From Leptobrachium leishanense (Eukaryota; Chordata; Amphibia; Anura; Megophryidae), in contig CM019064.1 of NCBI GenBank assembly GCA_009667805.1, positions 72,724,400 to 72,788,399 of the forward strand: a stretch of DNA of 64,000 bases, given 5' to 3'. The notes below the pieces were generated by a model that searched no databases, was not told where the DNA came from, and saw only the letters and a program-made list of their open reading frames with translations. The position numbers and the translations under genes are program-made. This document shows, piece after piece, positions 1 through 24,518 of the stretch. How positions within the stretch are numbered: the first letter of the stretch is position 1; every line of letters starts with the position of its first letter.

Positions 1-970
1 AGTGTTCCCTTTGCTAATTCCAACATCATTCGCCTCATTCGTCTCATTGTCTCCAGCACACTCTGCGTCCCTCCAGACTCACTTGCAATCTCTTCTTCTT
101 GCTCACTCGTGAGTTTTCTGCACTGTATGTATAGGAAATTTGATTGTTCCTTTGTGTCAATTGTGTATATGTATGATGTCCAATTGAATTTGCTTGAATA
201 ACACCCTTCCTTTTTATGTGTGTCCCTATCTGGTCCTATTTGGAAACACCACTCTGGGGGGTATATGTACCCTATTATGGGGTATCCGGCTCATACATTT
301 CTGGTTGTTCCCTGGGTGGCCGAAAAGAGTGTATTGTGATATTCCCTGATGCAAACATACTCAGGTTCATAGGAACAGAAGCAAATGGGATATGAATTGT
401 CTCTGGGTGCATTCTGCTGCACACCCAACATGCTTTCTGCCCAGATTTCTTAGCATAGTCATATTTAAATTGCACAAGTAAATGTCCTCTTGGCAATATC
501 TCGGATGATACTTCTCGTTTTTGTCTCCACATGGTACGGTTCTCCATCACCGGGTGCGTACCATTCCAGATATGGGAAATATCCACTTTCCCAGCGGTGC
601 TTGTACAATTGGGGCATGCTCCACGTGAGAGTCCATAAATCAGATTTGCAAGATATAAAATCAGCACCACAAATGCCCCGAATGTCAGAATTCCTTGGGC
701 AATTCTTTTCACAGTCACATAAACCCAATCCCTCCCCACCGGAATTTCAAAAGTAAAGAACATTTCTGGATGATCAAGGGTGGGGGCCGGGCCCCTAAAA
801 AGCACCCTGTGGGTATCCCCCGTTGGCGGGTGGTCAGGACCTGTGCCCATCAAAACACCCACTTGTTGATCCTCTGTTTTATCTGGGTTAGGATCATTTA
901 GGTGCTCATGGCTGTGGTCTTTGTCAGCTTCAGCCTCAGCGGGTTGGTCTCGTTGGTAACGACCTTCCAT
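1..970 (-). pseudogene. env: Retroviral env, N-terminal part, frameshifted and cut by window edge
   Basis: An ORF of 231 codons starts at 970 inside the 3' end of the integrase frame (overlap of about 70 bases, as usual for gammaretroviral env) and stops at 275. Residues 1-90 are hydrophilic with no cleavable signal at the very start. Residues about 92-113 form one hydrophobic segment, so the protein has a long cytosolic leader followed by a signal-anchor, a layout reminiscent of foamy virus Env leaders. After it lie five N-glycosylation sequons (residues 121, 136, 144, 202, 210) and a CWVC motif at 181-184, the CxxC typical of gammaretroviral surface subunits. Another minus-strand frame is open from about 290 to position 1, so a single frameshift near 285-291 probably ended the first frame. 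The transmembrane subunit lies outside the window. Confidence 0.8.
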
Positions 971-2190
971 GCTGGTTCACGACTGGCTGCAGCTGCTTTC
1001 ACTCTGGAGTGATGTATCCACGGGACCACCTCGGCAACCTTTACTGCTGTAGGGGTTGATAACAGGACAAGATAAGGACCTCTCCATTTTGGACCTAGTG
1101 GATCATTTTTCCACTCTTTTACCCATACTGAGTCACCCGGACAATACTTATGCAGTGAAAGATACAGAAAATGCGGTATATTATCCCCCACCCAAGTATT
1201 TAATTTCTGCATTGATTTACCCAGCATTACTACCTGATCATTTAGTTTAGTCTCTCCCAATGCCCGAAGGTCCCCCCTTAGTCCATTAATCAGAGGGGTT
1301 GGCCGTCCAAACATAAGTTCGTACGGACTTAGCTTCAATTGGGGGGTTGGTCTGCACCTAATGTGCAAAAGGACTATCGGCAGCAAGTCCAACCAGCCCA
1401 GTGACGTCTCTTGGCACAGTTTGGACATCAAAGTCTTTAGGGTACGGTTCATTCTTTCAACTTTTCCCGAACTTTGGGGCCTGTAGGCGGTATGTAGCTT
1501 CCAGGTGATGCCCAGTAGCCGGGCAAGTTGTTGTAAACAGTTCTGGATAAATGCAGGGCCATTGTCCGACCCTATTTCAAGTGGAAGTCCGTAACGTGGT
1601 ATTATTTCTTTCATCAGACTCTTTACCACTTCTGTAGTCTTTTCAGTTCTTGTTGGGAAGGCTTCCACCCATCCTGTCAAAGTGCACACCATCACTAGTA
1701 AATATTTGTATCCTTTGCAGGGTGGTAACACTGTAAAGTCTATTTGTAACGATGCCATTGGGGATAGCCCGATTGGCTGTTTCCCTGGGGGTTGAGATGG
1801 TCCTGTTCTCGGGTTGTTTTTGGCACATGTTACACACTGCTGAGCTGTTGCTTTGCAGATTGCTGACAATCCTGGTACATAGAAATGTGGCTCCAACTGT
1901 TGCTCCATCATTTCTCTCCCTCCATGGGTACTTGCGTGAAGTGCTCTTACGATTTCAGGAGCCAGTGTTGCTGGTAGAACTATTCGTCCATTCTCCATCT
2001 GGAACCATCCATCTTCTCCATATCCTCCGGGTTCTTCTGTCAGCCACTTCTTTTCTTTCTCTGAGTACACAGGTGTCCATTCGCTCAGTGGCGCCGGTAG
2101 AAGTGCAGCCACCACTGGTTTTGGTTTGTATCGTGCCAATTCTCCATGATTTCCCCAGATAAATTCTTCTTTTGGAAATAGTATCGCCAT
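898..2190 (-). pseudogene. pol: Retroviral integrase (C-terminal part of Pol)
   Basis: A 430-codon open frame carries an integrase with all key residues. The zinc-binding HHCC is H85, H89, C119 and C122; the catalytic triad is D151, D209 and E245 with 35 residues between the last two (DD35E). The C-terminus (residues about 350-400) matches the gammaretroviral SH3-like region with a WxGPY element and a WIHHSRVKAA stretch. It would process viral DNA ends and join them to host DNA. The first about 24 residues are not integrase: they are the tail of the OGFr domain described separately, reached after a frameshift near 2185-2195. The annotated ATG is therefore probably not a real start; the domain belongs to the Pol polyprotein. 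Confidence 0.93.
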
Positions 2191-2749
2191 GCGAAAAATA
2201 ACAAATCTTGTCTGTCTTGTTAATCTCTTACTGCTGGTATGAAAAAGTTCATTGCACTTTTCTTCATTCTTGGCAGTCTGTTCTTGATAAGGATCTCCTT
2301 GAGGAAGAACCTCACCAGTGGGACTTGATATTCTTCTGCTCCCAATTCTCCCAGACTGTGCAGTATTCGTGTGATTCGTAGATTATTGTGAGGATTGATT
2401 GTCAAATTTTAAAATCGTGACGCGAAATTTTCTGCTCGTTCAACTTCAGTTATTTCTTTGTCTTCCTCCTCCCCCACTATTTTTACGCCGAAGAATTTCA
2501 GCATAATTTTGTAGGCTCTGCGCAGTCTTTGCTGAACTTCTGAGGTGTTAACCATTAGGCGTGTCTCTTGCGGATTTAGAGGAGTAGAGTAGAAATTTCG
2601 GCCTTGTGTCCGAGTTGGGAAAAGCCATTGGATGTAATCATGATTAAGTTCTAACAGTTCATAATCATCTTGCCATTTGTGCAGTATTATTTCAATGAAC
2701 TCGCCGTGGGGTTCAAACTTTCTCAAATTCATGTAGAACTCGTAATTTG
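2119..2749 (-). pseudogene. OGFr (opioid growth factor receptor) domain captured inside retroviral pol
   Basis: Directly after RNase H, in the same frame and without a stop, the translation becomes an OGFr conserved region. Seen: NYEFYMNL start (residue 157 of the frame opening at 3215), the hallmark NHDYIQWLFP (191-200), then RLRRAYKIMLKFFGVKI (230-246). After one in-frame TAA at 2409-2411 the same frame continues (2408-2223) with NNLRITRILHSLGELG, PLVRFFLKEIL and a KKSAMNFF segment. A stop at 2220-2222 and a frameshift follow, and the last piece (EEFIWG, then ELARYKP) lies at the start of the integrase frame. Together these follow, in order and at family spacing, the about 210-residue core of vertebrate OGFR, a nuclear-envelope-associated growth inhibitor that binds Met-enkephalin. 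The C-terminal repeats of OGFR are absent and no intron is seen. Its role in a retrovirus is unknown. It occupies the RNase H-integrase linker, the slot used by dUTPase in non-primate lentiviruses. Confidence 0.93.
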
Positions 2750-3635
2750 GCATGGAAGGTTGAGGTTCTTGCTTGCAGATCAGTACTTTAGCTTGATCTT
2801 CTGTTGGCGGTGGCGGTTTTGCAGCTGCTTTTGCGGCCTGGTCTGCGCGTCTGTTACCTTTTGGAATTTCATCATGGCCTTTTTGGTGGCCACGACAGTG
2901 CATGATGCTGACAGCACTTGGTTTCCATACCGCTTCCAGGAGGGCCGTGATTTCAGCTGCATATTTGATTAGTTGTCCTGAAGACGTGAGTAGGCCTCTC
3001 TCTTTGTAGAGTGCACCATGTGCATGGACTGTCATGAAGGCGTACTTGGAATCCGTGTAGATATTTACTCTTTTGCCTTCAGAAAATTCAAGGGCTCTGG
3101 TTAAAGCTATTATTTCAGCCAATTGTGCAGATGTATGGCCTGGCAGTGGCTTTGCTTCGATGACTTCTTCTGTTGAGACTACTGCATAGCCGGAGACTTT
3201 CTTCCCATCATCCATGTAGCTGCTACCATCGTGAATAGCTGTAGATCGTATTTGTCTAGGGGTACGTCTTTCAAATCTGGCCTGCTACTGAACACTTCTT
3301 CCATGACTTGGAGGCATTCATGATCTGGATCCTCTTCACAGTCAGGCAGTAAAGTAGCAGGATTCAGGGTAGCGATGAGGTCCAAATGAACCCGTGGGTT
3401 TTCACACATCATGGCTTGGTACTTCGTCATCCGGCTGTTGCTGAACCAGTAACCTCCCTTCACATCCAGCAGGCCTTGACAGCGTGGGGCACCTTGACAT
3501 GAAGAACTTGTCAAGGGTCAGCTTGTCTGCTTCTGCTATCAGCATTGCGGTGGCAGCCACTGCTTTCAGGCATGGGGGTAGGCCGCAGGCCACAGGGTCG
3601 AGTTGCTTGAGAGGTAGGCCACAGGCCTCAGCCAT
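2750..3635 (-). pseudogene. pol: Retroviral RT connection and RNase H domain, frameshifted
   Basis: Three overlapping minus-strand frames (3635-3402, 3514-3179, 3215-2409) cover the connection subdomain and RNase H of a gammaretrovirus-like Pol; at least two frameshifts lie near 3500 and 3210. The DGSS motif opening RNase H is at the frame switch near 3215-3235. The remaining acidic residues are present: E34 in SAQLAEI, D55 in YTDSKYAF and D125 in GNRRADQAA of the frame starting at 3215, with the HCRGHQKGH stretch between. It would degrade the RNA of RNA-DNA hybrids. The protein continues without a break into the OGFr domain through a proline-rich linker (KPPPPTEDQ). Confidence 0.9.
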
Positions 3636-4347
3636 GAGCCAAAGGTCTGGACCAATACTACTGTTGCTGTTTGATTATGTTCATGCACGAACAGCTGGAA
3701 GGGCTTGCTGTGATCTGGCAGGCCCAGTGCAGGAGCTTCCATCAGCAGAGTCTTTAATTTCTGGAACGCTGCTGTTTGCTCTTCTTCCCAATGGAAGGGG
3801 TCTTGTTCTCCCCCCTTCGTGGCTTGATGAAGCGGCTTGGCAATATCTGCGAAGTTGGGGATCCACAGGCGGCAGAAGCCTACAGCTCCCAGGAACTCAC
3901 GGACTTGTCTTCTGGTCTTTGGTTGGGGTATGCGGCACACCGCTTCTTTTCTTTCTGCCCCCAGTGCACGTTTGGTACCTGTTAACTGGAAACCCAGGTA
4001 TTTTACACTTTGTTTGCATATTTGTACTTTCTTTTTAGAAACTCTGTAACCTGCTTGGCTTAGCAGATGTAGCAGGGCTTTTGTGGCGGATAAACAGTCT
4101 TTTTCTGTTGGGGAAGCCAGTAATAAATCATGAACATATTGGAGTAGCACTACTTTGTCTGGCTGAGCGTTGAAGGCGAGGAGGTCTTGGCTAAGCGCGC
4201 ACCCGAAAATCGTGGGTGAATTTTTGAAACCTTGAGGGAGGCGCGTCCACGTCATTTGATGGCGCGCCCCCGTGGTAGACTCTTCCCACTGAAATGCAAA
4301 AAGGGGCTGGCTTGCTGGAGCCAGGCGGATGCAAAAGAAAGCGTCTT
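3566..4347 (-). pseudogene. pol: Reverse transcriptase, C-terminal part (palm, thumb), catalytic Asp lost
   Basis: The frame begins at the piggyBac insertion site (4348) inside RT motif A and is open to 3566. It contains the LPQGFKNSPTIF motif, the active-site box and the thumb. The active-site box reads YVHD (His codon at 4130-4132) where YVDD is expected for this lineage, so the first of the two metal-binding aspartates is missing. The C-terminus ends by frameshift near 3590-3640, where the connection domain continues in another frame. Confidence 0.93.
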
Positions 4348-4351
4348 TTAA

Positions 4352-4819
4352 ACCCCTTAGTGACCGGGCGTTTTACACAAATCCGTCCTTTAGGACCGCT
4401 GCTGTTTTACGTTTCTGCGTTGTTAGTGTTTACGTCAAATTTTCCTCTTACTCGTTTATGTTAACCCACAAATATTTTACACTGTTTTTCTCGTCATTAA
4501 ATGGACTTTATAAAAGATACCATTTTTTTTCATCATTCATATAATTTACTATAAAAAATATTGTGAAATATGACAAAAAAATTGAAAAAACACCACTTTT
4601 CGAACTTTGACCCCCAAAATTTCTTATGTATCAACAACCGTCAAAAAAAATTAATTCCTTAGTAGTTTCTAAATTTAGTACTGAGTTTAGCAATACCCAA
4701 TGTTTACATATTCCTCGCTTTTTTCCTTATTTTATGCAACAATAAGTGCAAGTAGCACTTTGCCATTTCCAAAGAGTTTATTTTCAAAACTAGTGCTAGT
4801 GACATTGTAACACTGATAT
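4352..4819. other. Left subterminal region of piggyBac element
   Basis: AT-rich sequence between the left terminus and the first recognisable repeat unit. No frame of substance and no hairpin series like that at the right end. Confidence 0.6.
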
Positions 4820-5022
4820 CTGTCACTAATTCCTGAATAACCCACCACCACATATACTATTTTTTTTAAGTAAGTACACAAATCAAGGTATTAAACTTGG
4901 GGTATTTTGACTCTTTCCATGCAAACCATTTTACCACAAATCTATGCCAAAGTTTGAGGAAAAAAAAGTTTTTGGTGATTTTTTTTTTGAACGCAATTTA
5001 AGAATACATGTACTGTGAACTT
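4820..5022 (+). repeat. Degenerate outlying copy of array 1 unit
   Basis: Stretches here align with the array 1 unit but are heavily diverged: a CACCACATATACTA element matches CACCCATGTATAG, and TTTCCATGCAAACC with ATCTATGCCAAAGTTT matches TTTCCATGCACTAGCTCTATGTCAAACTTT piece by piece. Divergence at the array edge and homogeneity within is what unequal exchange produces. Confidence 0.6.
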
Positions 5023-8000
5023 TAAGGTTTACTGCCAAAAGAGCACCCCAAAATATGTTCAGCAACATCTTCTGAGTAAATTGATACCACCCATGTATAG
5101 GTATGTCGGGTCATTTGGGGGCTAATAGGCCTTATTTGGGGTGCGCATTTCAGTTTTCCAACTTGGAATTTTCACATTTCGTCATCATGCACCCATGTCC
5201 TATTTGGGACATTTTTGAAGCCGGCCAAAGTAATTTACCCCCATCAAACCATATATTTTTAGAAAGGGCACACCCTAGGGTGCTTCAAAGAGTTGTATTT
5301 TAACACTTCCATGCACTAGCTCTATGTCAAACTTTCAGGTAGTCACTTTTTGGGTTATTTTTTCACACACATTGTACTTTAGGCATGAATTGTCAAATCC
5401 AGTTATGGGTTACTGCCAAAAAACACCCCAAAATATGTTCAGCAACATCTTCTGAGTAAATTGATACCACCCATGTATAGGTATGTGGGTCATTTGGGGG
5501 CTAATAGGCCTTATTTGGGGGTGCGCATTTCAGTTTTCCAACTTGGAATTTTTCACATTTCGTCATCATGCACCCATGTCCTATTTGGGACATTTTTGAA
5601 GCCGGCCAAAGTAATTTACCCCCATCAAACCATATATTTTTAGAAAGGGCACACCCTAGGGTGCTTCAAAGAGTTGTATTTTAACACTTTCCATGCACTA
5701 GCTCTATGTCAAACTTTCAGGTAGTCACTTTTTGGGTTATTTTTTCACACACATTGTACTTTAGGCATGAATTGTCAAATCCAGTTATGGGTTACTGCCA
5801 AAAAACACCCCAAAATATGTTCAGCAACATCTTCTGAGTAAATTGATACCACCCATGTATAGGTATGTCGGGTCATTGGGGGCTAATAGGCCTTATTTGG
5901 GGGTGCGCATTTCAGTTTTCCAACTTGGAATTTTCACATTTCGTCATCATGCACCCATGTCCTATTTGGGACATTTTTGAAGCCGGCCAAAGTAATTTAC
6001 CCCCATCAAACCATATATTTTTAGAAAGGGCACACCCTAGGGTGCTTCAAAGAGTTGTATTTTTAACACTTTCCATGCACTAGCTCTATGTCAAACTTTC
6101 AGGTAGTCACTTTTGGGTTATTTTTTCACACACATTGTACTTTAGGCATGAATTGTCAAATCCAGTTATGGGTTACTGCCAAAAAACACCCCAAAATATG
6201 TTCAGCAACATCTTCTGAGTAAATTGATACCACCCATGTATAGGTATGTCGGGTCATTTGGGGGCTAATAGGCCTTATTTGGGGGGTGCGCATTTCAGTT
6301 TTCCAACTTGGAATTTTCACATTTCGTCATCATGCACCCATGTCCTATTTGGGACATTTTTGAAGCCGGCCAAAGTAATTTACCCCCATCAAAACCATAT
6401 ATTTTTAGAAAGGGCACACCCTAGGGTGCTTCAAAGAGTTGTATTTTAACACTTTCCATGCACTAGCTCTATGTCAAACTTTCAGGTAGTCACTTTTGGT
6501 TATTTTTTCACACACACATTGTACTTTAGGCATGAATTGTCAAATCCAGTTATGGGTTACTGCCAAAAAACACCCCAAAATATGTTCAGCAACATCTTCT
6601 GAGTAAATTGATACCACCCATGTATAGGTATGTCGGGTCATTTGGGGGCTAATAGGCCTTATTTGGGGGGTGCGCATTTCAGTTTTCCAACTTGGAATTT
6701 TCACATTTCGTCATCATGCACCCATGTCCTATTTGGGACATTTTTGAAGCCGGCCAAAGTAATTTACCCCCATCAAACCATATATTTTTAGAAAGGGCAC
6801 ACCCTAGGGTGCTTCAAAGAGTTGTATTTTAACACTTTCCATGCACTAGCTCTATGTCAAACTTTCAGGTAGTCACTTTTTGGGTTATTTTTTCACACAC
6901 ATTGTACTTTAGGCATGAATTGTCAAATCCAGTTATGGGTTACTGCCAAAAAACACCCCAAAATATGTTCAGCAACATCTTCTGAGTAAATTGATACCAC
7001 CCATGTATAGGTATGTCGGGTCATTTGGGGGCTAATAGGCCTTATTTGGGGGGTGCGCATTTCAGTTTTCCAACTTGGAATTTTCACATTTCGTCATCAT
7101 GCACCCATGTCCTATTTGGGACATTTTGAGAAGCCGGCCAAAGTAATTTACCCCCATCAAACCATATATTTTTAGAAAGGGCACACCCTAGGGTGCTTCA
7201 AAGAGTTGTATTTTAACACTTTCCATGCACTAGCTCTATGTCAAACTTTCAGGTAGTCACTTTTGGGTTATTTTTTTCACACACATTGTACTTTAGGCAT
7301 GAATTGTCAAATCCAGTTATGGGTTACTGCCAAAAAACACCCCAAAATATGTTCAGCAACATCTTCTGAGTAAATTGATACCACCCATGTATAGGTATGT
7401 CGGGTCATTTGGGGGCTAATAGGCCTTATTTGGGGGGGTGCGCATTTCAGTTTTCCAACTTGGAATTTTCACATTTCGTCATCATGCACCCATGTCCTAT
7501 TTGGGACATTTTTGAAGCCGGCCAAAGTAATTTACCCCCATCAAACCATATATTTTTAGAAAGGGCACACCCTAGGGTGCTTCAAAGAGTTGTATTTTAA
7601 CACTTTCCATGCACTAGCTCTATGTCAAACTTTCAGGTAGTCACTTTTTGGTTATTTTTCACACACATTGTACTTTAGGCATGAATTGTCAAATCCAGTT
7701 ATGGGTTACTGCCAAAAAAACACCCCAAAATATGTTCAGCAACATCTTCTGAGTAAATTGATACCACCCATGTATAGGTATGTCGGGTCATTTGGGGCTA
7801 ATAGGCCTTATTTGGGGGGTGCGCATTTCAGTTTTCCAACTTGGAATTTTCACATTTCGTCATCATGCACCCATGTCCTATTTGGGACATTTTTGAAGCC
7901 GGCCAAAGTAATTTACCCCCATCAAACCATATATTTTTAGAAAGGGCACACCCTAGGGTGCTTCAAAGAGTTGTATTTTAACACTTTCCATGCACTAGCT

Positions 8001-8917
8001 CTATGTCAAACTTTCAGGTAGTCACTTTTTGGGTTATTTTTTCACACACATTGTACTTTAGGCATGAATTGTCAAATCCAGTTATGGGTTACTGCCAAAA
8101 AACACCCCAAAATATGTTCAGCAACATCTTCTGAGTAAATTGATACCACCCATGTATAGGTATGTCGGGTCATTTGGGGGCTAATAGGCCTTATTTGGGG
8201 GTGCGCATTTCAGTTTTCCAACTTGGAATTTTCACATTTCGTCATCATGCACCCATGTCCTATTTGGGACATTTTTGAAGCCGGCCAAAGTAATTTACCC
8301 CCATCAAACCATATATTTTTTAGAAAGGGCACACCCTAGGGTGCTTCAAAGAGTTGTTTTTAACACTTTCCATGCACTAGCTCTATGTCAAACTTTCAGG
8401 TAGTCACTTTTTGGGTTTTTTTTCACACACATTGTACTTTAGGCATGAATTGTCAAATCCAGTTATGGTTTACTGCAAAAAAACACCCCAAAATATGTTC
8501 AGCAACATCTTCTGAGTAAATTGATACCACCCATGTATAGGTATGTCGGGTCATTTGGGGGCTAATAGGCCTTATTGGGGGGTGCGCATTTCAGTTTTCC
8601 AACTTGGAATTTTCACATTTCGTCATCATGCACCCATGTCCTATTTGGGACATTTTTGAAGCCGGCCAAAGTAATTTACCCCCATCAAACCATATATTTT
8701 TAGAAAGGGCACACCCTAGGGTGCTTCAAAGAGTTGTATTTTAACACTTTCCATGCACTAGCTCTATGTCAAACTTTCAGGTAGTCACTTTTTGGTTATT
8801 TTTTCACACACATTGTACTTTAGGCATGAATTGTCAAATCCAGTTAGGTTACTGCCAAAAAACACCCCAAAATATGTTCAGCAACATCTTCTGAGTAAAT
8901 TGATACCACCCATATAT
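5023..8917 (+). repeat. Tandem array 1, about ten 382-bp units
   Basis: The marker TTGATACCACCCAT recurs at 5081, 5461, 5843, 6224, 6608, 6991, 7375, 7758, 8140, 8521 and 8900, so spacing is 379-384 bp. Units are nearly identical; differences are mainly homopolymer length changes. Each unit opens short plus-strand frames of 60-90 codons, but unit length is not a multiple of three and the frames break at each indel, so they are not genes. Confidence 0.97.
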
Positions 8918-9170
8918 AGATTTGTTCTGTTGTTTTTGGGGTTGCTACGCCAATTTTGACATGTGCTTGTCAATTTTCTAATTTGACATACAGTATCTCT
9001 TTGCTTATCTTCTTTTTAGGGCCTTTTTACATACCCCATTTATGAACGTGCATATATTGGTAAGCTAACACCCCAAAGGTATTGTAAATGGAGTGTTTTT
9101 ATGCTATGGATGCAACCGTTTGCTCCAAACAAATTGGATACTGTTTGGTGGTCATTTTCATTTTCACACC
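8918..9170 (+). repeat. Transition between the two arrays
   Basis: A single diverged unit linking the arrays: it begins like array 1 (CACCCATATATAG) and ends like array 2 (ATGCTATGGATGCAACC). It is intermediate between the two families rather than a clean junction. Confidence 0.7.
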
Positions 9171-11990
9171 CACATCAGTTTTGGACTGTGATTAGGAGAC
9201 ACGGTTGTTTGTTACTGCATGAAAAACTCCAGGTTGTTTTCTGCAAGGTCTCCTGAGTACACCCATGCCCCCCATGCATAGGTTTGCCAGGATTTTTGGA
9301 AGGTTCAAATACAATTTTTATGACTTTGTCATTGGAGTTGAAATTGAGATTATTTCTTCAGCTAGGCCTAGCTTTGGTTTTGGGTCTACCGCATACCCCA
9401 GTTTGAATTATTGCCAGAAAATTGTTTATATTTGTTATGTTGACACCCCAAGGTATTGCATATGGAGTGCTTTGATGCCATGGATGCAACGGTTTTAGCC
9501 CAAAACATTTGAGAAGGTGTGTGGTGTAATTTTTCAATTTTCAGATTTTCACACCCACATCAGTTTTGGACTGTGATTTAGGAGACACGGTTGTTTGTTA
9601 CTGCATGAAAACTCTCCAGGTTGTTTTCTGCAAGGTCTCCTGAGTACACCCATGCCCCCCATGCATAGGTTTGCCAGGATTTTGGGAAGGTTCAAATACA
9701 ATTTTTATGACTTTGTCATTGGAGTTGAAATTGAGATTATTCTTCAGCTAGGCCTAGCTTTGGTTTTGGGTCTACCGCATACCCCAGTTTGAATTATTGC
9801 CAGAAAATTGTTTATATTTGTTATGTTGACACCCCAAGTATTGCATATGGAGTGCTTTGATGCCATGGATGCAACGGTTTTAGCCCAAAACATTTGAGAA
9901 GGTGTGTGGTGTAATTTTTCAATTTTCAGATTTTCACACCCACATCAGTTTTGGACTGTGATTTAGGAGACACGGTTGTTTGTTACTGCATGAAAACTCT
10001 CCAGGTTGTTTTCTGCAAGGTCTCCTGAGTACACCCATGCCCCCCATGCATAGGTTTGCCAGGATTTTGGGAAGGTTCAAATACAATTTTTATGACTTTG
10101 TCATTGGAGTTGAAATTGAGATTATTTCTTCAGCTAGGCCTAGCTTTGGTTTTGGGTCTACCGCATACCCCAGTTTGAATTATTGCCAGAAAATTTGTTT
10201 ATATTTGTTATGTTGACACCCCAAGGTATTGCATATGGAGTGCTTTGATGCCATGGATGCAACGGTTTTAGCCCAAAACATTTGAGAAGGTGTGTGGTGT
10301 AATTTTTCAATTTTCAGATTTTCACACCCACATCAGTTTTGGACTGTGATTTAGGAGACACGGTTGTTTGTTACTGCATGAAAACTCTCCAGGTTGTTTT
10401 CTGCAAGGTCTCCTGAGTACACCCATGCCCCCCATGCATAGGTTTGCCAGGATTTTGGGAAGGTTCAAATACAATTTTTATGACTTTGTCATTGGAGTTG
10501 AAATTGAGATTATTTCTTCAGCTAGGCCTAGCTTTGGTTTTGGGGTCTACCGCATACCCCAGTTTGAATTATTGCCAGAAAATTGTTTATATTTGTTATG
10601 TTGACACCCCAAGGTATTGCATATGGAGTGCTTTGATGCCATGGATGCAACGGTTTTAGCCCAAAACATTTGAGAAGGTGTGTGGTGTAATTTTTCAATT
10701 TTCAGATTTTCACACCCACATCAGTTTTGGACTGTGATTTAGGAGACACGGTTGTTTGTTACTGCATGAAAACTCTCCAGGTTGTTTTCTGCAAGGTCTC
10801 CTGAGTACACCCATGCCCCCCATGCATAGGTTTGCCAGGATTTTGGGAAGGTTCAAATACAATTTTTATGACTTTGTCATTGGAGTTGAAATTGAGATTA
10901 TTTCTTCAGCTAGGCCTAGCTTTGGTTTTGGGTCTACCGCATACCCCAGTTTGAATTATTGCCAGAAAATTGTTTATATTTGTTATGTTGACACCCCAAG
11001 GTATTGCATATGGAGTGCTTTGATGCCATGGATGCAACGGTTTTAGCCCAAAACATTTGAGAAGGTGTGTGGTGTAATTTTTCAATTTTCAGATTTTTAC
11101 GCCCACATTAGATTTGGACTGTGATTTAGGAGACACTGTTGTTTGTTACTGCATGAAAACTCTCCAGGTTGTTTTCTGCAAGGTCTCCTGAGTACACCCA
11201 TGCCCCCCATGCATAGGTTTGCCAGGATTTTGGGAAGGTTCAAATACAATTTTTATGACTTTGTCATTGGAGTTGAAATTGAGATTATTTCTTCAGCTAG
11301 GCCTAGCTTTGGTTTTGGGTCTACCGCATACCCCAGTTTGAATTATTGCCAGAAAATTGTTTATATTTGTTATGTTGACACCCCAAGGTATTGCATATGG
11401 AGTGCTTTGATGCCATGGATGCAACGGTTTTAGCCCAAAACATTTGAGAAGGTGTGTGGTGTAATTTTTCAATTTTCAGATTTTACGCCCACATTAGATT
11501 TGGACTGTGATTTAGGAGACACTGTTGTTTGTTACTGCATGAAAACTCTCCAGGTGTGTTTTCTGCAAGGTCTCCTGAGTACACCCGCCCCCCATGCATA
11601 GGTTTGCCAGGATTTTGGGAAGGTTCAAATACAATTTTTATGACTTTGTCATTGGAGTTGAAATTGAGATTATTTCTTCAGCTAGGCCTAGCTTTGGTTT
11701 TGGGTCTACCGCATACCCCAGTTTGAATTATTGCCAGAAAATTGTTTATATTTGTTATGTTGACACCCCAAGGTATTGCATATGGAGTGCTTTGATGCCA
11801 TGGATGCAACGGTTTTAGCCCAAAACATTTGAGAAGGTGTGTGGCGGTAATTTTTCAATTTTTTATTTTTACGCCCACATTAGATTTGGACTGTGATTTA
11901 GGAGACACTGTTGTTTGTTACTGCATGAAAACTCTCCAGGTTGTTTTCTGCAAGGTCTCCTGAGTACACCCATGCCCCCATAGGTGTGCA
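9171..11990 (+). repeat. Tandem array 2, about seven 387-bp units
   Basis: The marker CTGCAAGGTCTCCTGAGTAC recurs at 9241, 9628, 10013, 10401, 10789, 11176, 11563 and 11948, giving 385-388 bp spacing. The unit shares an ordered set of blocks with array 1 (GTTACTGC, CTGAGTA, CCCATG-ATAGGT-TG) in the same orientation. Repeated 65-96-codon frames are by-products of the array. Confidence 0.97.
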
Positions 11991-12137
11991 AAGATTTTGG
12001 CAAAATACAGCACCAATTATAGAACATAAAAATGTACGAATAAAATGTAAAAGTCTGGTGCAGTAAAAGAAAAAAAAACTAAACTGAACTAACTAACTGG
12101 AGTGTGAGAAAAAATAGAAAGGAAAAAAAAAATCACA

Positions 12138-13844
12138 GATCACGCACAGTGTGATATATCTTGAAACAGTCCCCAAGACACAGACCGGGTTGTCCAGGGC
12201 ATTCTGGGCAGTAAAAGATTGTGTCTCTCCTCTGCCCCCTCTTGAAACACACCCTGCACCTTTTTTGGGGTTTCTGTTTGCCCTCAGTAGGGGGATTTTA
12301 TAAATAAAATGCGTAGCCCCAACTCTGTCCCCCATCACCGCCCGGGGAGCAGGTGCATCCTGGTACAAAAGCCCCGAAATGACCTGGAGCTGAAACTGTA
12401 AAAAGGACAGCGTCACTCCGGGGTTTGCCTTTTTGCAGAGCAAAAAGGCATTGTGGGTTGCAATTTGCATCAGGTAAATTGCAACCTTTTTGTACCAGGC
12501 CCTTGACTTCCGCATAATCTGGTAGGGCTGGAGCAGCTGATCTGCCAGATCAACCCCACCCATATGCCGGTTATAGTCTTTGATGCACACTGGCTTCCTG
12601 ATGCGCTCAGCTCTGCCACGTACAGAGACCTCCACAGACCTCTCAGTGTGGATGGTGGATAGAAGGTATACATCCTTCTTGTCTCTGTACTTGACCGCCA
12701 ACAGCTCCTCTTGGCGCAGAGCTGAGGTCTCCCCCCTTTTTAGCCGGGTGCGGACAAGCTGTGCTGGAAACCTACGCGGTTCTTGCGAACAGTACCGCAT
12801 GCTGCTGTATCAAAACAATACAGCAGCTTGAACAAAGGGACACTTGTATAAAAATTATCAACATACAAGTGGTACCCTTTGTTCATCAGGGGAAAAAGTA
12901 GGTCCCACACAATCTTGCCACTGGTTCCCATGTGTTCTGGGCAACCTGGAGGGTCAAGGCTACTATCCTTTCCCTCGTACACCCGGAAGGCCTGAGTATA
13001 CCCACTCTCGCTGTCACAGAGCTTATACACCTTCACTCCATACCTGGAGCGTTTGGAAGGAATATACTGCTTGAATCCCAGCCTTCCCTTGTATTTCATT
13101 AGGGATTCATCCACGCAGATATTCCTTCCAGGGTGTATAAGCCTCTGCAAACCTGGCGGCGAAGTGGGTAATCAGGGGGCGGATTTTATACAGCCTGTCA
13201 AACTGGGGATGCTCTCTAGGAGGGCACAGGCTGTTGTCACTGAAGTGCATGAAACGCAAAATGTTTCATACCTTCTACGTGACATTGATTGGGGGTAAAT
13301 GGGGGTAGAGCAGATGGGGCTACTGCTCCAGTAGGAGCGAATTGAGGGCTTCTTTATGATGCCCATCAGCATAGTAAGTGCCCAGAATTTCAGAAATTCT
13401 GGCACATCTAGCGGGGTCCATTGCTGCCTTGCCAAGTAGGAGTCTGGCTTCGCAGCACAATGCTGATGGGCATACAGATTTGATTGGGCCACGATGTGGC
13501 CCAACAAATCATCCCCCATAAACACCTGCAAAAACTGTGGCGGTAAATCCTGCAACATCAATATTGATGCCAGGATTTGCCGTGAAAGGAGGGATATCTG
13601 GCCTCTGGCGATGAGGCACTACCCACTCCTCAGCTGGAGCTGTGCGTCTCCTGCTGGCAGGTGGTGACCCAGGATCTGCATCAGAAACATCACTAGATAC
13701 ATCAGCCAGCGTAGATGATGTATCTAGCGACGTCTCTGAGCAGTTGGCGGGGTCAAAATCAGGGTCGGAGTCTGACGCAGATGCCTCAGATTCTGACGCC
13801 AGGATGGCATATGCCTCCTCGGCGCTGTACACCCTCTCAGACAT
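12138..13844 (-). pseudogene. piggyBac-like transposase, several frameshifts
   Basis: The N-terminus starts at 13844 with MSERVYSAEEAYAILASE, acidic and Ser-rich as in PGBD-type proteins. Successive pieces lie in different frames: 13844-13509, 13561-13172, 13150-12740 and 12800-about 12280, with a C-terminal piece to 12138. Catalytic aspartates remain: VDES (13109-13111), VDNFY (residue 98 of the frame starting at 13150) and GGVDLADQ (residue 84 of the frame starting at 12800). The C-terminal cysteine-rich zinc-binding domain (CRVC, YCPECPGQPGLCLGDCF) is present in yet another frame and ends at a natural stop near 12138. It would cut and paste the element at TTAA; here it cannot be translated. 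Confidence 0.93.
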
Positions 13845-13859
13845 TATATAAATAGATTA

Positions 13860-14250
13860 TAAAATTTTATAATTATTATATATAATAAGCGGATTGTTGG
13901 TTCTTAGAAGAACCGTTGGGTTTCACAAGAAAATACAAATAAACACCTAAATCTCTCTAAATCACTCTAAACCTGCCTCAATTCTTCTAAATCTCCCTAA
14001 AATCTCTCTAAATCTGCCTAAATTTTTCTAATCTCACTAAAATCTCTCTAAATCTGCCTAAATTTTTCTAATCTCACTAAAATCTCTAACCTGTCAAATC
14101 TGATCTCTCTCTCTCGCTCACCAAAACACAAGTGAGGAGAGGGAGGGAGAATCACAGAGGTCAGAGCCAATATTTACAAAATATTGACCTGACCTGACAA
14201 ATTAGAAAATTTATTTTGATTTTTTTTTACTTCTGATTGGATGTTGCTAG
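13860..14250. repeat. CT-rich degenerate short repeats upstream of transposase
   Basis: From about 13945 to 14100, variants of AAATCTCTCT and AAATCTGCCT alternate, including a 41-42-bp block repeated twice, followed by CT/GA-rich and AT-rich sequence. This lies where a transposase promoter would be; a TATATAA-like stretch abuts the ATG. Confidence 0.6.
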
Positions 14251-14640
14251 CCTGCCTCTCTGATGAGGCAGGCTAGGAACATCCCACTCAGCCCAAGATG
14301 ACCCTGCCCTTAGAAGGGCAGCGCCATCTTGGCTGTCAGTTTATTTTATTTTATATTCATTTTTATTGATTTTTATTTTACTTTTTTACTTTTTTACACT
14401 TTTTTTTACTCTGCTGGGTGCCTTGATCCCTCGAGGCACCCAGCAGAGCACCTGATCACTCATGTGATCGTTTTGTACTGAGTGCCACGATACCTCGTGG
14501 CACTCAGTACTTCCTGCCGCTACCGGAAGTGATCGCTCGGGGGAGCGATCACTTAGCGGACCGGCGGCAGGTAAGCATATTGCAAGGATGCCTCGATGTC
14601 GAGGCATCCCTGCAATATACACAGAGCAGCTGGAAGCGAT
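14251..14640. repeat. Cluster of perfect hairpins, piggyBac right subterminal region
   Basis: Consecutive inverted repeats: 14409-14423 with 14434-14448 (15 bp), 14475-14490 with 14495-14510 (16 bp, 4-base loop), 14528-14537 with 14544-14553 (10 bp), and an imperfect one at about 14577-14620. Each is separate and not nested in its neighbour. Confidence 0.9.
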
Positions 14641-15000
14641 ACCGATCGCTTCCAGCGCTCTCTAGAAGTGCCGGGCACCTCTCCGGTGAAACCGGATGTT
14701 GATCGCTCCCGGGAGCGATCACAAGGTGCCCCGGCACTTCTCACCGCCATTGCACGGATGCCTGGACTCCCAGGCATCCTGCAATGGCGTTTGAGCTGCT
14801 GAAGCGATCCGATCGCTTCCAGCGCTCTTAGAAGTGCCGGGCACCTCTCCGGTAAACACGGATGTTGATCGCTCCCGGGAGCGATCACAAGGTGCCCCGG
14901 CACTTCTCACCGCCATTGCACGGATGCCTGGACTCCCAGGCATCCTGCAATGGCGTTTGAGCTGCTGGAAGCGATCCGATCGCTTCCAGCGCTCAAAAAA
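14641..15000. repeat. Two-copy tandem repeat of a palindrome-rich 167-bp unit
   Basis: GATCGCTTCCAGCGCTC occurs near 14645, 14811 and 14979; the intervening units are nearly identical. Each contains GATCGCTCCCGGGAGCGATC, a perfect 20-bp palindrome, and inverted pairs around GGATGCCTGGACTCCCAGGC. Confidence 0.9.
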
Positions 15001-15002
15001 CC

Positions 15003-15066
15003 GCAGGACGTACCATGTACGTCAGCGGGTCTAAAGAGACCCGCTGCAATGACGTACATGGTACGT
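15003..15066. repeat. Terminal hairpin of piggyBac right end
   Basis: GGACGTACCATGTACGTC and GACGTACATGGTACGTCC flank a second inverted pair AGCGGGTC/GACCCGCT, forming a compound hairpin just inside the right terminus. Such ends occur in many frog TTAA elements. Confidence 0.85.
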
Positions 15067-15088
15067 CCTGGGTCCTTAAGGGGGTTAA

Positions 15089-15392
15089 ATCAAGCACTGT
15101 GTAATAATTTTGTATCTCCGGGAATTAATGCAGCACAATTGTATGGATTAAGAACCACAGGGTGTAGTTTTACTGTGGCCTCGTTGACAGCTCGTAAATC
15201 TTGGACAGGGCGGTACTCTTGTGTCCCCTCTTTCAGTACTGGCAATAAGGGTGTGTTCCATGGTGACACGCAGAATTTTAATATGCCGTGATCTTTAAGT
15301 CTCTGTAAATGTATCTGTATATTCTGCATGGCTTTCTGTGGGATATGATATTGTCTCAGGGCCACAGGTGTTGCGCCGGGCTTTAATTCCAC
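15089..15392 (-). pseudogene. pol: Reverse transcriptase, N-terminal part (fingers), split by piggyBac insertion
   Basis: This holds the fingers of a gammaretrovirus-like RT: KPGATPVALRQY, then SPWNTPLLPV and YRPVQDLRAVNE. The frame stops at 15090-15092 because of a frameshift a few codons upstream of the transposon junction at 15085-15088. The remainder of the enzyme resumes at 4347 on the other side of the 10.7-kb insertion. The ATG at 15392 is internal; protease and linker precede it at 15400-15990. Confidence 0.93.
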
Positions 15393-15399
15393 GTATACC

Positions 15400-15990
15400 G
15401 GGGGGTATATTTATGGCAAGTCCGGGCGGGTTTCCTCCGCCCATACCCCAGGGAATTTCAAGGAGTAGTGCGTGCGGATCCAGCGCGGCAGGCAGATAGT
15501 AGGTGTCCGTGGCGCCATTTCTTCCTCCCTTGGCAATAACTACTGCGATTTTTACAGATTGTGGTGATTCTGGGCTCTGGCTGGGTTATGCTGCCGAGCA
15601 GAGCTGCCACCCTCCGGCAGGTCATAATGAGCGTGACCCCGGGAAGGAACGTTAATTTTGGGCTTTGCAATTTGCAAAGGATATCCCGCCCCAGGAGCTG
15701 GATGGGACATTAGGGCATATACAAAAATTCATGTTCAACCATTATGCCACCCACACTACATTTTTCTAGAAGCAAGAAAAGGATATTTAGCAGACACCCC
15801 CATTGCTCCCATAATATCAACCTCATTTTCCATTGGAGGTGCAATTTGTTTTGTTACAACAGAATATTCAGCACCGGTATCAACCATAAAATCTCATCTT
15901 TATTTCCACTCTCATTTGTGACCGTGGGCTCGTGGTTACCGAGCGGGATGGGCCCAGGTCCCCGTCAATATGCATCCTGCCCTTTCAAAT
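15400..15990 (-). pseudogene. pro: Retroviral aspartic protease and protease-RT linker, degraded
   Basis: In the minus strand the active-site motif VDTGA is encoded at 15870-15884, followed by EYSVVTKQIAPP. A stop codon interrupts the frame near 15753-15755, and the flanking sequence (to about 15640) is recognisable only in shifted frames. It would cleave the Gag-Pol polyprotein as a homodimer. Position between the nucleocapsid knuckle and RT fits a gammaretrovirus-type gag-pro-pol order. Confidence 0.75.
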
Positions 15991-16129
15991 GATGTCCCCC
16001 GCCAGTCCCACAAACCCCGCTCCATTCCCCTCACTTCTTTCATACCTTCCGTCTGTTACCTGGCCATTAGGGCTCTTGACCTCCCGCCTCCCCAGCTTCA
16101 CCCTGTCCCCAAATTTAGCCAAAAATGCA

Positions 16130-17804
16130 GGACAGTGTTTTTTCCAGTGACCTTCACCGGCACCACGCGCACTGATTGGGTCCTAGGGGTTCCCTAGGGG
16201 CTCCCCTTCCTCTTCCTCTAGCCCCCCTACCCCTTGCCTCCCTCTGGTCTGGGCCACCTCGTCCTCCACCATTCCCCATGTATCCGACCACCCCGGTAAT
16301 GTCCCTTCTGTTTCTTTATCTCCTCTAGGTCCCGGTTATGATACACCTTATTAGCGATCTCAATTAATTCACTAATACCTTTCCCCAAAAACCCATCTAT
16401 TCTCTGTATTTTGTTCCGTATATCCCTCTGTGACTGACCCACAAACGAAGAGTTAATTAACCTCTGATTCTCCGTTGCCTCAGGATCAATGGGACTATAC
16501 ATCCTGTACGCATCCAGCAATCTCTCTAGAAACGCACTTGGGGATTCTTTAACCTCTTGTATCACATCTGCTATTTTTCCCATGTTCGTGGGCTTCTTCC
16601 CTCCCGCTTTAACACCCATTATTACTGCTGTTCTGTATGTCTGCAAATGGGCAACTCCTTCAACTGTATTGTACGGCCATTTAGGATCTGTTTTGGGGTA
16701 GTGTTCCTCTGCCCATGCTTCTGGATGAGGCTTAGCATCTGCTACGGCTTGGGCGAGTAAAATCTTTTGCGCGCTACTATTTATTCGGGCTCTTTCCTCT
16801 GTGGTAAACATTGTCAACATTAATTGCTGACAATCTGCCCATGTGGGGTTATGTGTGAGCATGACTGACTCTATCATACTGGCCACTGCGGGATTGGTGG
16901 AATACAGTGGTGTGTGTGTTTTCCAGTTAAAAAGATCTGTTGTCGTGAATGGGACGTATGTGTATTGCATTGGCCCTGGATTCCCATCCGCTAATGGGGG
17001 GCCTGGCACCTCCCGCAAAGGCATCTGCATAGCGCTCTTGTAGGGATTGTGTTGGTACGGATCCCGGTGTTTATATATGTTATTCGCTGCGCGTGTGGTA
17101 ACTCCCTGGTTCTCATCCTCCTTTTCACTATCACCATCCCCGTGGGGCACTAATTTATATATGCTTCCATCGGGCATCTCAATCTTCTCTGGTGGAGCCT
17201 CTCTGTCCCCTCCACCCGCTGCACCCTGCTCCTCTTCCGCAATCCCACGGGACGGAGCTGAGGGAGCTGACCGAGACACAGCAGCTGCCCGCTCCCCCCT
17301 CTCCGCCCGCGCAACCGCGGCACTCAAAGCTTCTCTGGCTGCCCCATAACATGATGGGTAGGACGGGGGCAAAACATCACTCTCTTCCGGTTGTTCTACT
17401 AACACCGGTCTCCCTCTCTCTTCATTATTCAAGGGGTCCTGCTTCTTATTTTTCCCCGCTATCATTATAAAATGACTCTTGTTTTTAATACAATATCTCC
17501 ATATATCTATATACGGGTACTGTTCAGGATGTCCGTACTGCTCTGTGACTTGGGAATGTACCTTCTGTACTAACTCTGGGTCCATTGACCCCTGCTCTGG
17601 CCATCCTGGGACTAATAACGGCCACACAACTGTACACATTACTTTTAACTTCTCTTTTGTCAATTCTACACCATAGTCATGCGTTTTATATAATGCTTCG
17701 AAATTCCGCACCATATATTCTAGGGGCGTCTCACCCTCCTTCACCTTCTTGGGCTTAGATGACCCGTTACCCATTATTACTCCTGAAAACAGTACCCTTT
17801 GCAA
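16130..17804 (-). pseudogene. gag: Retroviral gag: matrix, capsid and broken nucleocapsid
   Basis: A long frame (17804-16227) encodes matrix and capsid. The likely start is the ATG at 17774, giving MGNGSS, an N-myristoylation signal, rather than the upstream ATG at 17804. A PPSY late-domain motif (residues 146-149 counted from 17804) would recruit NEDD4-type ligases for budding. A charged, Glu/Gly-rich region precedes the capsid, which begins near PLREVPGPP. The frame ends in a basic stretch at 16227. The nucleocapsid zinc knuckle (CxxC, then GH and a final C) lies downstream at about 16135-16175 but in two different frames, so one frameshift precedes it (around 16240-16260) and another sits inside it. 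Confidence 0.92.
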
Positions 17805-18869
17805 TACAGATATATTATTTCAACAACAGTTAAAATCTACAGTCTGATACTTCAGCCAACAATTCGTTCGTGTCTGAGGCGCTTCCCCCGTCAGTAGCCG
17901 ACTGCAGTCGCCTGAGCCGGAAACGTACGTTAGGGGTCAAAACTCGTATTTGCTTCCTCGCGGAGCGAGTAGGCGCACGTTCACTCACAGCACTCGAGTC
18001 AATTCATTCACAGCACATACTGTATCAGATACTTTCAGCACATAACAAAACATAGACACTTCAACTCTTTCTACTAGCCGAGGGTACTCAGTCCCTCCTC
18101 TGTGGCTCCTTATACCCCGTAATTTGAACTCTAACTCTTGACTGCGTGTGACTATGTGCACCCCGTTCTATATCTATACTCCCGTCTGCAATTCCAATTT
18201 GCCTATGAGTAATCCTACCCACCCGGCACCACTATCTCTGCAGCTACCGCTGGCTCCAATATGAGCCCTCTTCACTACACGACGTACACACTAGCACTGA
18301 CTCAGGCTCTCAGCCCAGTCACAGAAAATCCCTCCTCCTTTCCCTTTTACCCACGTGGCGAAGCTCTGTTTACAAACACTGACTAATATGACTATGCAAC
18401 TCCACATGGCTACCTTCTCCCTCTCTTACAGAACTACCCTTTGGTTGGCATTCAATTCCCCCGAATCCAGACACGCGCTAGCCACTCTGGCTCCTTAGCA
18501 ATGTCCGTGCTATCAGCGGCGGGCTAGATATGCCAACGGGATGGTGGCCATCGCATCCCCTTATCCGTCTATCTCAGTCGGACGTTTCCCTTAGATACCG
18601 GTATCTCCTTTAGACATACAAAACACAGAAGACACGTTACCTATCGCCGGCACTGCTTGCTGTTTCCTCAGACTCAGTGGTGTCCCAGTTCCCGGGTCAG
18701 GAGTCCGTTTGGGACGAGACGAGGTCCACTGAACAGGAAATCCTGCTTGGCGCCTGCAGATGTCAGCTCACCTTCAACGGACGCCCAACCAGCGGGATTC
18801 TTGCACCTGCAGTCAACCGCCACAGTGTGTTCAGCAGCCCGTTACTGTGTGCCCGAAAGGGCCCGTATC
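17805..18869 (-). other. Retroviral 5' leader with candidate splice donor
   Basis: About 1.07 kb separates the primer binding site from gag. A good splice donor match (AG followed by GTAACG on the minus strand) has its exon-intron border at 18641/18640 and could serve env mRNA. Packaging elements are expected here but I cannot pick one out. No convincing reading frame is present. Confidence 0.6.
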
Positions 18870-18887
18870 CCGGCACTCGAGCCCCCA
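18870..18887 (-). promoter_or_regulatory. Primer binding site, proline-tRNA-like with an internal difference
   Basis: The minus strand reads TGGGGGCTCGAGTGCCGG, five T residues after the LTR end. The first ten bases equal the tRNA-Pro site used by many gammaretroviruses; the rest looks like that site with three extra bases. It could be a mutated Pro site or the site of an unrecognised tRNA. Confidence 0.65.
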
Positions 18888-18987
18888 AAAAATGTAGGCG
18901 GACAAAAACAGATTCATTTTCAAGACGGCGCCGGACCGGACACAAGTAAGGATTGTCAGAACACGAGTCTCTTCAGGAAAGGCAAAC

Positions 18988-18993
18988 TTTATT
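18988..18993 (-). terminator. LTR polyadenylation signal
   Basis: AATAAA on the minus strand sits between the TATA box and the LTR end, as expected for the R region of a gammaretrovirus-like LTR; cleavage would fall near 18960-18975. Confidence 0.6.
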
Positions 18994-19067
18994 GTGTCGT
19001 CACACAAGTGCTCACACAGGATTGAATCGCAAAGAGTGAGCCCCTTCTCCCCCCCGTGCAAGGGGTC

Positions 19068-19072
19068 TTATA
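19068..19072 (-). promoter_or_regulatory. LTR TATA box
   Basis: TATAAG on the minus strand, about 75 bases upstream of the AATAAA signal, marks the likely U3/R promoter of the provirus. Confidence 0.6.
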
Positions 19073-19440
19073 CCCAAAAATACGTAATTAGGTACATCCC
19101 AATTAGCCCACCTCCCGATGACACTTTATTCCACCCCACGTGGGTTAATACCTCCCATCGTTAGTACAAAGAAATGCCACATTCTAGCTATAAATTGATA
19201 CACTTCATGTTAGTTTGACAGTCCGTGATTTGTTGTGCTGTCTTTCTCAGGGCAGTGCCGTCCTCCCTATAGGCTGTGTTTATTTGAGATAGCTTGGGGC
19301 CTGGTCTGTTCTCTACGATCTCTTTGTTTCTCTACAAGTCTCAGTGACCTTGCCCCATTCATTCATCTTCCTGTCTCTCCGTGCCAAGAACCGGCCGGAT
19401 TCTGCCTGGTTTTATTGCTAGTTCCCTAATCTACCACACA

Positions 19441-19715
19441 TTCTTTGAATTCTATGTAAGCTTCGTTTTTCACATCTAATAAAATCTATTCTATTTACTG
19501 GTGAACCAATATTCTGAACAAGATGGCTGCCTGGCTCATAGTAGCAACCATCTTTCAGCCTGATTCGACTTCAGCACGAGAGTGTCTATTATGATGTAAG
19601 ACAAAAAGGCAAGAAAAAAAGTAGAATGAATCTACTTTAAACCAAACAAATAAAATTATATGTAGTTATATTGTGGATTGGGGATATATAATATACTGTA
19701 TATATACTGTATATA
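19441..19715. other. Unassigned flank between retrovirus and Tc1 element
   Basis: AT-rich, no frame, no repeat boundary recognised. It is the host-side flank of the provirus. Confidence 0.5.
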
Positions 19716-21514: not shown

Positions 21515-21618
21515 GTGATATTCCCTCATTACCCCAATTACAATGTGCAGATAAAAGGCCCAGAGTTCATTTCAAGTGTGCTATTTGCCTTTGGAATCTG
21601 TTGCTGTCAACTCTCAAG

Positions 21619-22629: not shown

Positions 22630-22640
22630 AGTCTGCAGTT

Positions 22641-22883: not shown

Positions 22884-24518
<1,635 letters not shown>

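What the first reader, a model, noticed from the sequence alone, without database searches (positions are those of the whole stretch)
2119..2749. A host OGFr domain is fused into retroviral Pol between RNase H and integrase
Seen: the RNase H frame runs through a proline-rich linker straight into NHDYIQWLFP, then NNLRITRILHSLGELG and PLVRFFLKEIL, and, after a frameshift, EEFIWG and ELARYKP at the start of the integrase frame. Known: these motifs, in this order and spacing, define the vertebrate opioid growth factor receptor core. Inference: an ancestral retrovirus captured OGFR mRNA sequence and expressed it as a Pol domain. The slot is the same as that of the dUTPase of non-primate lentiviruses, so this linker may be a recurrent landing place for captured genes. 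I know of no described retrovirus with an OGFr domain.
Basis: partly seen in the sequence, partly recalled or inferred. Interest (0 to 1): 0.96.

Follow-up and report, generated by a model that had tools for sequence, protein, structure and literature searches.

The report
Toad retrovirus carrying captured OGFR domain
In a toad genome (very likely Leptobrachium leishanense) a large family of endogenous retroviruses carries, inside its polymerase gene between the RNase H and integrase domains, a piece of the host's own OGFR gene that was likely captured once from host messenger RNA, has likely been kept by selection, and would probably travel in the virus particle to help it in the newly entered cell.

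Summary
An OGFr_N domain (Pfam E=6e-34 and 4e-22) lies in the RNase H frame and runs into the integrase of an endogenous gammaretrovirus-type Pol, window 2122-2756, minus strand. This copy is dead: a stop and a frameshift in the domain, RT split by about 10.7 kb of later insertions. A sister retrovirus in the same genome has 9 residues where three OGFr proteins have 239-243, which pins the site. The viral domains tested form one clade, sister to the toad's own OGFR: one capture, after the split from Pelobates. A host OGFR gene has this region in at least five blocks; the viral domain has no such breaks, so spliced mRNA was the likely source. dN/dS is about 0.12, against 0.94 and 1.55 in shifted frames. 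The one copy dated has LTRs differing at 2 of 689 positions. Function is untested; I favour a virion-delivered early factor. Searches of the held literature listed no paper on it.

The parts
2820..3233 (-). RNase H domain of Pol, same open frame as the first part of OGFr
   Evidence: PF00075 E 2.9e-24
2757..2819 (-). linker between RNase H and OGFr
   Evidence: domain limits; alignment
2412..2756 (-). OGFr domain, first part (profile 5-115)
   Evidence: PF04664 E 6.2e-34; motif places
2409..2411 (-). in-frame stop inside the OGFr domain of this copy
2223..2408 (-). OGFr domain, second part (profile 117-178)
   Evidence: PF04664 E 4.2e-22
2122..2169 (-). end of the OGFr domain (EEFIWG to ELARYKP), after a frameshift, in the integrase frame
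   Evidence: alignment of relatives
2077..2103 (-). LLPAPLSEW, the right-hand anchor of the insertion site shared with the OGFr-free sister
1807..1974 (-). integrase zinc-binding domain (H2C2)
   Evidence: PF17921 E 2.6e-10
1477..1761 (-). integrase core (rve)
   Evidence: PF00665 E 2.4e-17
991..1152 (-). MLV-type integrase C-terminal domain
   Evidence: PF18697 E 5e-18
278..976 (-). env-like open frame by position; part matches the end of a Leptobrachium gene model (P0133); no Pfam match
3566..4372 (-). second part of reverse transcriptase (RVT_1, RT_RNaseH_2)
15108..15608 (-). first part of reverse transcriptase, separated from the rest by about 10.7 kb
16230..17819 (-). gag open frame (Gag_MA and Gag_p30, MLV type)
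   Evidence: E 6.3e-11 and 4.8e-54
18771..19573 (-). 5' LTR remnant with the adjoining leader end (89% identical over 821 columns to the same part of the L048 copy)

Best explanation
A gammaretrovirus-type virus of megophryid toads carries an OGFR-derived domain in its Pol between RNase H and integrase, likely acquired once by recombination with spliced host OGFR mRNA, likely kept by purifying selection, and likely packaged in the virion, where it would act on the incoming reverse-transcription and integration complex. Shown: the in-frame architecture in many copies; grouping of the viral domains with the toad's OGFR; the host region split into blocks and the viral one unbroken; a sister virus without the insert; low dN/dS; one copy with near-identical LTRs. 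Inferred: capture by template switching with a co-packaged OGFR mRNA; release by the viral protease as a separate product or as an extension of RT or IN; delivery in the core at the stoichiometry of RT and IN; and the mechanism, which I take to be binding of the same nuclear partner(s) as host OGFR through the residues that both keep, helping the complex reach or use the nucleus. I put about 0.35 on that last step against the rival functions, and about 0.95 on capture plus constraint.
For: Identity: Pfam. Family trait: 150 of 150 scored places pass the cut-off, nine of them in an open frame of exactly 1440 aa (capped list out of 5871 candidates); of 68 copies read, picked for OGFr, RNase H lies upstream in 64, integrase downstream in 67, both in 63; 21 of 68 have RNase H-OGFr-IN in one stop-free frame; UniProt gene models of L. 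leishanense carry these domains in one chain (P0001, P0122, P0123, P0220), and P0122 is found letter for letter, unspliced, in copy L026. Origin: 31 viral rows form one clade (100/99), sister to two L. leishanense OGFR proteins (100/97), then Pelobates OGFR (97/90); a smaller tree agrees, with AU p=0.029, 0.020 and 0.021 against three alternatives, named after the first tree was seen. mRNA: an OGFR gene in this genome has the region in five blocks with gaps, the viral domain is unbroken (636 nt for 212 aa in L055); copy L015 also keeps host residues 5-65 in frame. Site: sister L083 has 9 residues between anchors where P0220, P0121 and P0010 have 239-243 (3 of 6 OGFr proteins tried had both anchors). 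Constraint: dN/dS 0.117 over 501 pairs with dS 0.1-1.0; frames +1 and +2 give 0.94 and 1.55 over 1468 and 1257 pairs; 56 columns at least 95% constant in 41 host rows are 91% kept in 72 viral rows, against 27% for 86 variable columns. Fold: AF2 pLDDT 93, pTM 0.90. Youth: LTR pair of the L048 copy differs at 2 of 689 positions, with TG...CA ends and a 4-base target duplication. Position argues for an early, virion role, as for lentiviral dUTPase (PMC4531489, passages).
Against: Nothing here tests expression, cleavage, packaging or function. The 68 copies were picked by OGFr profile score, which favours good domains and lowers dN/dS by an unknown amount. RNase H and integrase of the same copies are more constrained over most of the range (RNase H 0.04-0.06 at OGFr dS 0.1-1.5; IN 0.05-0.06 above dS 0.1), so OGFr is the more tolerant part; at dS under 0.1, RNase H and OGFr hardly differ or OGFr is lower (0.128 and 0.134; 0.23 and 0.15). 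Pairwise dN/dS counts related pairs many times. The place of L083 as sister has moderate support (81/82; OGFr clade 93/89; one OGFr-free row). The host exons found belong to an OGFR gene 92% identical to P0135 in its longest block; the P0135 gene itself was not among the capped rows. The AF2 alignment included host rows, so it does not show that the viral domain folds by itself. Only one copy could be dated. A nuclear role of OGFR is recalled, not from a call.
Confidence: 0.85

Rival explanations
1. Decoy: the viral OGFr domain works in the infected cell as a competitor of host OGFR and relieves its growth-inhibiting activity, so that more cells divide; a gammaretrovirus that needs mitosis for integration would gain from this.
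For: Only the conserved core is kept, without the long C-terminal tail of host proteins such as P0142 (559 aa) and P0161 (660 aa), as one would expect of a dominant-negative fragment; host-constant residues are kept. OGFR as a growth brake and the need of gammaretroviruses for mitosis are recalled, not from a call.
Against: A Pol domain is made at low level and mostly leaves in particles (recalled); a decoy would be expected as its own spliced gene. No binding data.
Confidence: 0.25
2. Enzyme or ligand-binding cofactor: OGFr_N has an unrecognised catalytic or metabolite-binding activity that helps reverse transcription, in the way dUTPase does in lentiviruses.
For: Same slot as lentiviral dUTPase (PMC4531489, passages); polar residues (such as H, N, R and T in HNNLRITR) are nearly invariant in hosts and virus; a giant virus also carries an OGFr protein.
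Against: No solved relative found and no activity of OGFr_N known to me; the best structure matches are generic helical arrangements.
Confidence: 0.2
3. Spacer or passenger: the insert only lengthens the RT-IN linker, is tolerated, and does nothing specific.
For: The domain has about two to three times the dN/dS of RNase H over most of the range, and the linker next to it varies in length between subfamilies (P0006 and P0007 are longer).
Against: dN/dS of about 0.12 over deep divergence and 91% retention of host-constant residues are not expected of a passenger.
Confidence: 0.1
4. Artefact or chance: a later insertion of an OGFR pseudogene into a single provirus, or a gene-model or assembly chimera.
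For: The window copy is broken and is interrupted elsewhere by other elements.
Against: 63 of 68 copies on many contigs have the same order RNase H-OGFr-IN; divergent subfamilies and a sister without the insert.
Confidence: 0.01

Closest known systems
dUTPase of non-primate lentiviruses (FIV, EIAV, visna, CAEV)
   Same: An extra domain inside Pol between RT and integrase, fixed across a virus lineage (PMC4531489, passages seen).
   Different: The domain is OGFr_N, not dUTPase; a gammaretrovirus-type virus, not a lentivirus; the host donor gene is identified and the capture is traced to one host lineage.
Retroviral oncogene transduction (v-src type; recalled)
   Same: Host mRNA sequence without introns is taken into a retroviral genome.
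   Different: Here the host piece is an in-frame Pol domain beside RNase H and integrase, kept through a long radiation, instead of replacing viral genes in a defective virus.
Vertebrate OGFR (opioid growth factor receptor)
   Same: Same conserved region (host residues from about 5 in copy L015 to about 277), 91% of host-constant residues kept.
   Different: Lacks the C-terminal tail and, in the main subfamilies, a recognisable N-terminal region; part of a Pol frame.
OGFR-like protein of Marseillevirus LCMAC202 (A0A481YX38)
   Same: The only viral structure match below E 0.001 in BFVD.
   Different: A giant DNA virus, its own protein of 186 aa, 22% identity.
Class I / gamma-type endogenous retroviruses of birds, reptiles and mammals
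   Same: Gag_p30, MLV-type integrase C-terminus; RNase H mostly 50-65% identical.
   Different: The six aligned have a short RNase H-IN linker and no OGFr.

Membership tests
OGFr_N (PF04664) | Significant match to the curated profile | tested here: met
   117.8 and 79.1 bits against a cut-off of 22
OGFr_N (PF04664) | Groups with OGFR rather than OGFRL1 in a tree | tested here: met
   (100/97 with L. leishanense OGFR), grouping with OGFRL1 rejected at p=0.020
OGFr_N (PF04664) | Binds the opioid growth factor (met-enkephalin; recalled) | not testable with these tools
   needs a binding assay
Gammaretrovirus-type (class I) endogenous retrovirus | MLV-type Gag (MA, p30) and MLV-type integrase C-terminus | tested here: met
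Gammaretrovirus-type (class I) endogenous retrovirus | LTRs at both ends with TG...CA and a short target duplication | tested here: met
   L048 copy: 689 nt, 2 differences, 4-base duplication. In the window copy only a 5' remnant was found; in the L014 copy the repeat found does not look like an LTR end
Gammaretrovirus-type (class I) endogenous retrovirus | Gamma-type Env | tested here: inconclusive
   two env-like frames had no Pfam match
Pol-borne dUTPase of non-primate lentiviruses | Extra domain between RT/RNase H and IN | tested here: met
Pol-borne dUTPase of non-primate lentiviruses | dUTPase domain | tested here: not met
   one search lists OGFr_N and no dUTPase between RNase H and IN
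Transduced oncogene (acute transforming virus) | Host gene replaces viral replication genes | tested here: not met
   21 of 68 copies keep RNase H, OGFr and IN in one frame

The most novel reading that the evidence does not exclude
A retrovirus lineage turned a host growth-control protein into a permanent extra domain of Pol: every particle carries a processed OGFR core next to RT and integrase, which works in the incoming complex through host OGFR's own nuclear partners. The RNase H-integrase joint is a general docking site where retroviruses accept host domains, as lentiviruses did with dUTPase.
Probability: 0.35. Interest if true: 0.96.

Novelty: new variant of a known kind. Interest (0 to 1): 0.88.

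Why it matters
Host genes taken up by retroviruses are best known as oncogenes that cripple the virus, or as old enzymes such as dUTPase whose donor is hard to trace (recalled). Here donor, spliced template, insertion site, insert-free sister, an early copy with more of the host gene, and a large radiation with at least one young copy are readable in one genome. This makes it a clean natural experiment on how a retrovirus gains a Pol domain. It is also an independent handle on OGFr_N, a conserved domain for which no solved structure was found: the virus shows which residues matter outside the host setting.

Full report
What is in the window. On the minus strand of the first 20 kb lies a dead provirus. 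Gag (16230-17819) matches Gag_MA and Gag_p30 of the MLV type. RT is in two pieces (15108-15608 and 3566-4372), separated by about 10.7 kb that contains two tandem arrays (5022-8919 and 9160-11979) and broken DDE_Tnp_1_7 transposase frames (12096-13618; piggyBac type by recollection). RNase H is at 2820-3233. From 2756 down to 2122 runs an OGFr_N domain: the first part is in the RNase H frame (E 6.2e-34), the second follows an in-frame stop (E 4.2e-22), and the last motifs follow a frameshift in the integrase frame. Integrase zinc-binding, core and MLV-type C-terminal domains follow. A 5' LTR remnant with the end of the leader is at 18771-19573; comparison of window 14001-24000 with the 4.5 kb left of the window found no shared LTR.

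It is a family trait. In the window's own genome (3.54 Gb) the OGFr profile gave 5871 first-look candidates; the 150 that were scored all pass the cut-off, and nine of them report an open frame of exactly 1440 aa. I read 68 of these 150 places as pieces of up to 3.6 kb (8, 60); they have OGFr by choice. RNase H lies upstream on the same strand in 64, integrase downstream in 67, both in 63; the other five lack one neighbour within the piece at E 1e-8. In 21 of 68, RNase H, OGFr and integrase share one stop-free frame. UniProt gene models of Leptobrachium leishanense show the same chain of domains (P0001, P0122, P0123, P0220). P0122 is identical over all 622 residues to copy L026, and P0106 over 292 residues to L014, so the window is very likely from this species.

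The donor. A tree of 73 OGFr domains (31 viral, 42 host; copies with more than one stop were left out) puts the viral rows in one clade (100/99), sister to two L. leishanense OGFR proteins (100/97), with Pelobates OGFR next (97/90) and OGFRL1 far away. A smaller tree with three decayed early copies agrees, and AU tests reject toad OGFR plus Pelobates OGFR without the virus (p 0.029), virus plus OGFRL1 (p 0.020) and virus plus Pelobates alone (p 0.021); these groups were named after the first tree was seen. I read this as one capture from OGFR after the split of the Leptobrachium line from Pelobates. An OGFR gene on contig C12 shows this region in five blocks with gaps between them, while the viral domain is unbroken, so the template was probably spliced RNA. 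The longest block is 92% identical to P0135, so this is a paralogue or variant of that gene.

The site. A retrovirus in the same genome without OGFr was found with an OGFr-free query: 10 of 138 listed matches start within RNase H and reach residue 231 or beyond without interruption. One of them, L083 (891 bases, no stop), is sister to the OGFr viruses in RNase H (81/82; OGFr clade 93/89). Between the shared anchors it has 9 residues; P0220, P0121 and P0010 have 239, 240 and 243 (three of six OGFr proteins tried had both anchors). Early-branching copy L015 also holds host residues 5-65 in frame, so the first capture probably reached almost to the host start codon and ended near host residue 277. 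The main subfamilies no longer show this N-terminal part, and one (P0006, P0007) has a longer linker.

Selection. By pairwise Nei-Gojobori counts on stop-free copies, OGFr dN/dS is 0.115-0.162 in all dS bins, RNase H 0.037-0.083 and integrase 0.046-0.060 above dS 0.1; below dS 0.1 they are 0.15, 0.23 and 0.10 (58, 39 and 24 stop-free copies of 68, 47 and 38 well covered). On the same 398 pairs of 36 copies OGFr is 0.115-0.117 and RNase H 0.037-0.062 at OGFr dS 0.1-1.5; on 105 pairs of 16 copies with all three domains OGFr is 0.067-0.101, RNase H 0.019-0.059 and IN 0.051-0.065. Frames +1 and +2 of the OGFr alignment give 0.94 and 1.55 (all). Of 56 columns at least 95% constant among 41 host rows, the 72 viral rows keep 91%; for 86 variable columns the figure is 27%. 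The domain looks constrained much as in the host, though less tightly than RNase H. The copies had been picked by OGFr score, which biases dN/dS downwards to an unknown degree.

Age. In the L048 copy the two LTRs (689 nt) differ at 2 positions, begin with TG, end with CA and are flanked by the same 4 bases; a primer-site-like stretch next to the 5' LTR looks like that of a proline tRNA, by recollection. This insertion is young. A second attempt (L014) failed, so one copy is no survey.

Structure. The viral domain is predicted with high confidence (pLDDT 93, pTM 0.90) and shows the same order of helices and one strand pair as the host model (pLDDT 86). No relative is solved by sequence (one search) or found by Foldseek at E<=0.001. 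In BFVD the only hit below that is an OGFr protein of Marseillevirus LCMAC202.

How it probably works. A domain inside Pol is made in a fixed ratio to RT and integrase and would go into the particle; [quoted passage not shown] That favours a role early in infection. The retained host-constant residues favour use of the same partner(s) as host OGFR, a protein that I recall to be nuclear. I therefore commit to a virion-delivered early factor for the incoming complex, at about 0.35, with a decoy of OGFR (0.25) and an enzyme-like role (0.2) as rivals. Nothing here tests any of these.

Novelty. Searches of the held PMC library list no paper on OGFr in a retrovirus. The paper that names L. leishanense among hosts of recent retroviral invasion has no OGFr or opioid in its main text (word search; passages). 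The domain architecture is visible in UniProt records; I found no discussion of it in these searches, and preprints and most subscription journals were not searched. I rate it a new variant of a known kind: host-domain capture into Pol.

Noticed in passing
window 5022-8919 and 9160-11979: Two arrays of about 381-bp and 387-bp tandem units (98% matches) lie inside the region that splits the RT of this provirus.
   Followed up: partly
window 12096-13618 (-): Broken transposase frames with DDE_Tnp_1_7 (piggyBac type by recollection) in the same split.
   Followed up: partly
window 21475-22161 (+): A Tc1/Tc3-type transposase frame (HTH_Tnp_Tc3_2, E 7.8e-23).
   Followed up: no
L079:1450-1861 and L080:1586-2137: Tandem units of about 41 bp flank the L048 provirus on both outer sides: it seems to have inserted into a minisatellite array.
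   Followed up: partly
L081:1-486 and L082:23-494: A 99.4% direct repeat with tandem units of about 44 bp around the L014 copy that does not end like an LTR; its nature is unclear.
   Followed up: partly
L015:1345-2148: An early-branching, decayed copy keeps the host OGFR N-terminus in frame, apparently a fossil of the first form of the capture.
   Followed up: yes
P0006, P0007, L020: One subfamily has a longer linker between RNase H and OGFr.
   Followed up: no
P0134-P0136 and P0152; L077: L. leishanense seems to have more than one OGFR gene (P0135 and P0152 are 90% identical over 206 residues).
   Followed up: partly
BFVD A0A481YX38: Marseillevirus LCMAC202 carries its own OGFr protein: a second, distant viral OGFr.
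   Followed up: no
P0253: A Bombina OGFRL1 gene model contains a transposon-like stretch (RT_RNaseH_2); it looks like a gene-model chimera.
   Followed up: partly
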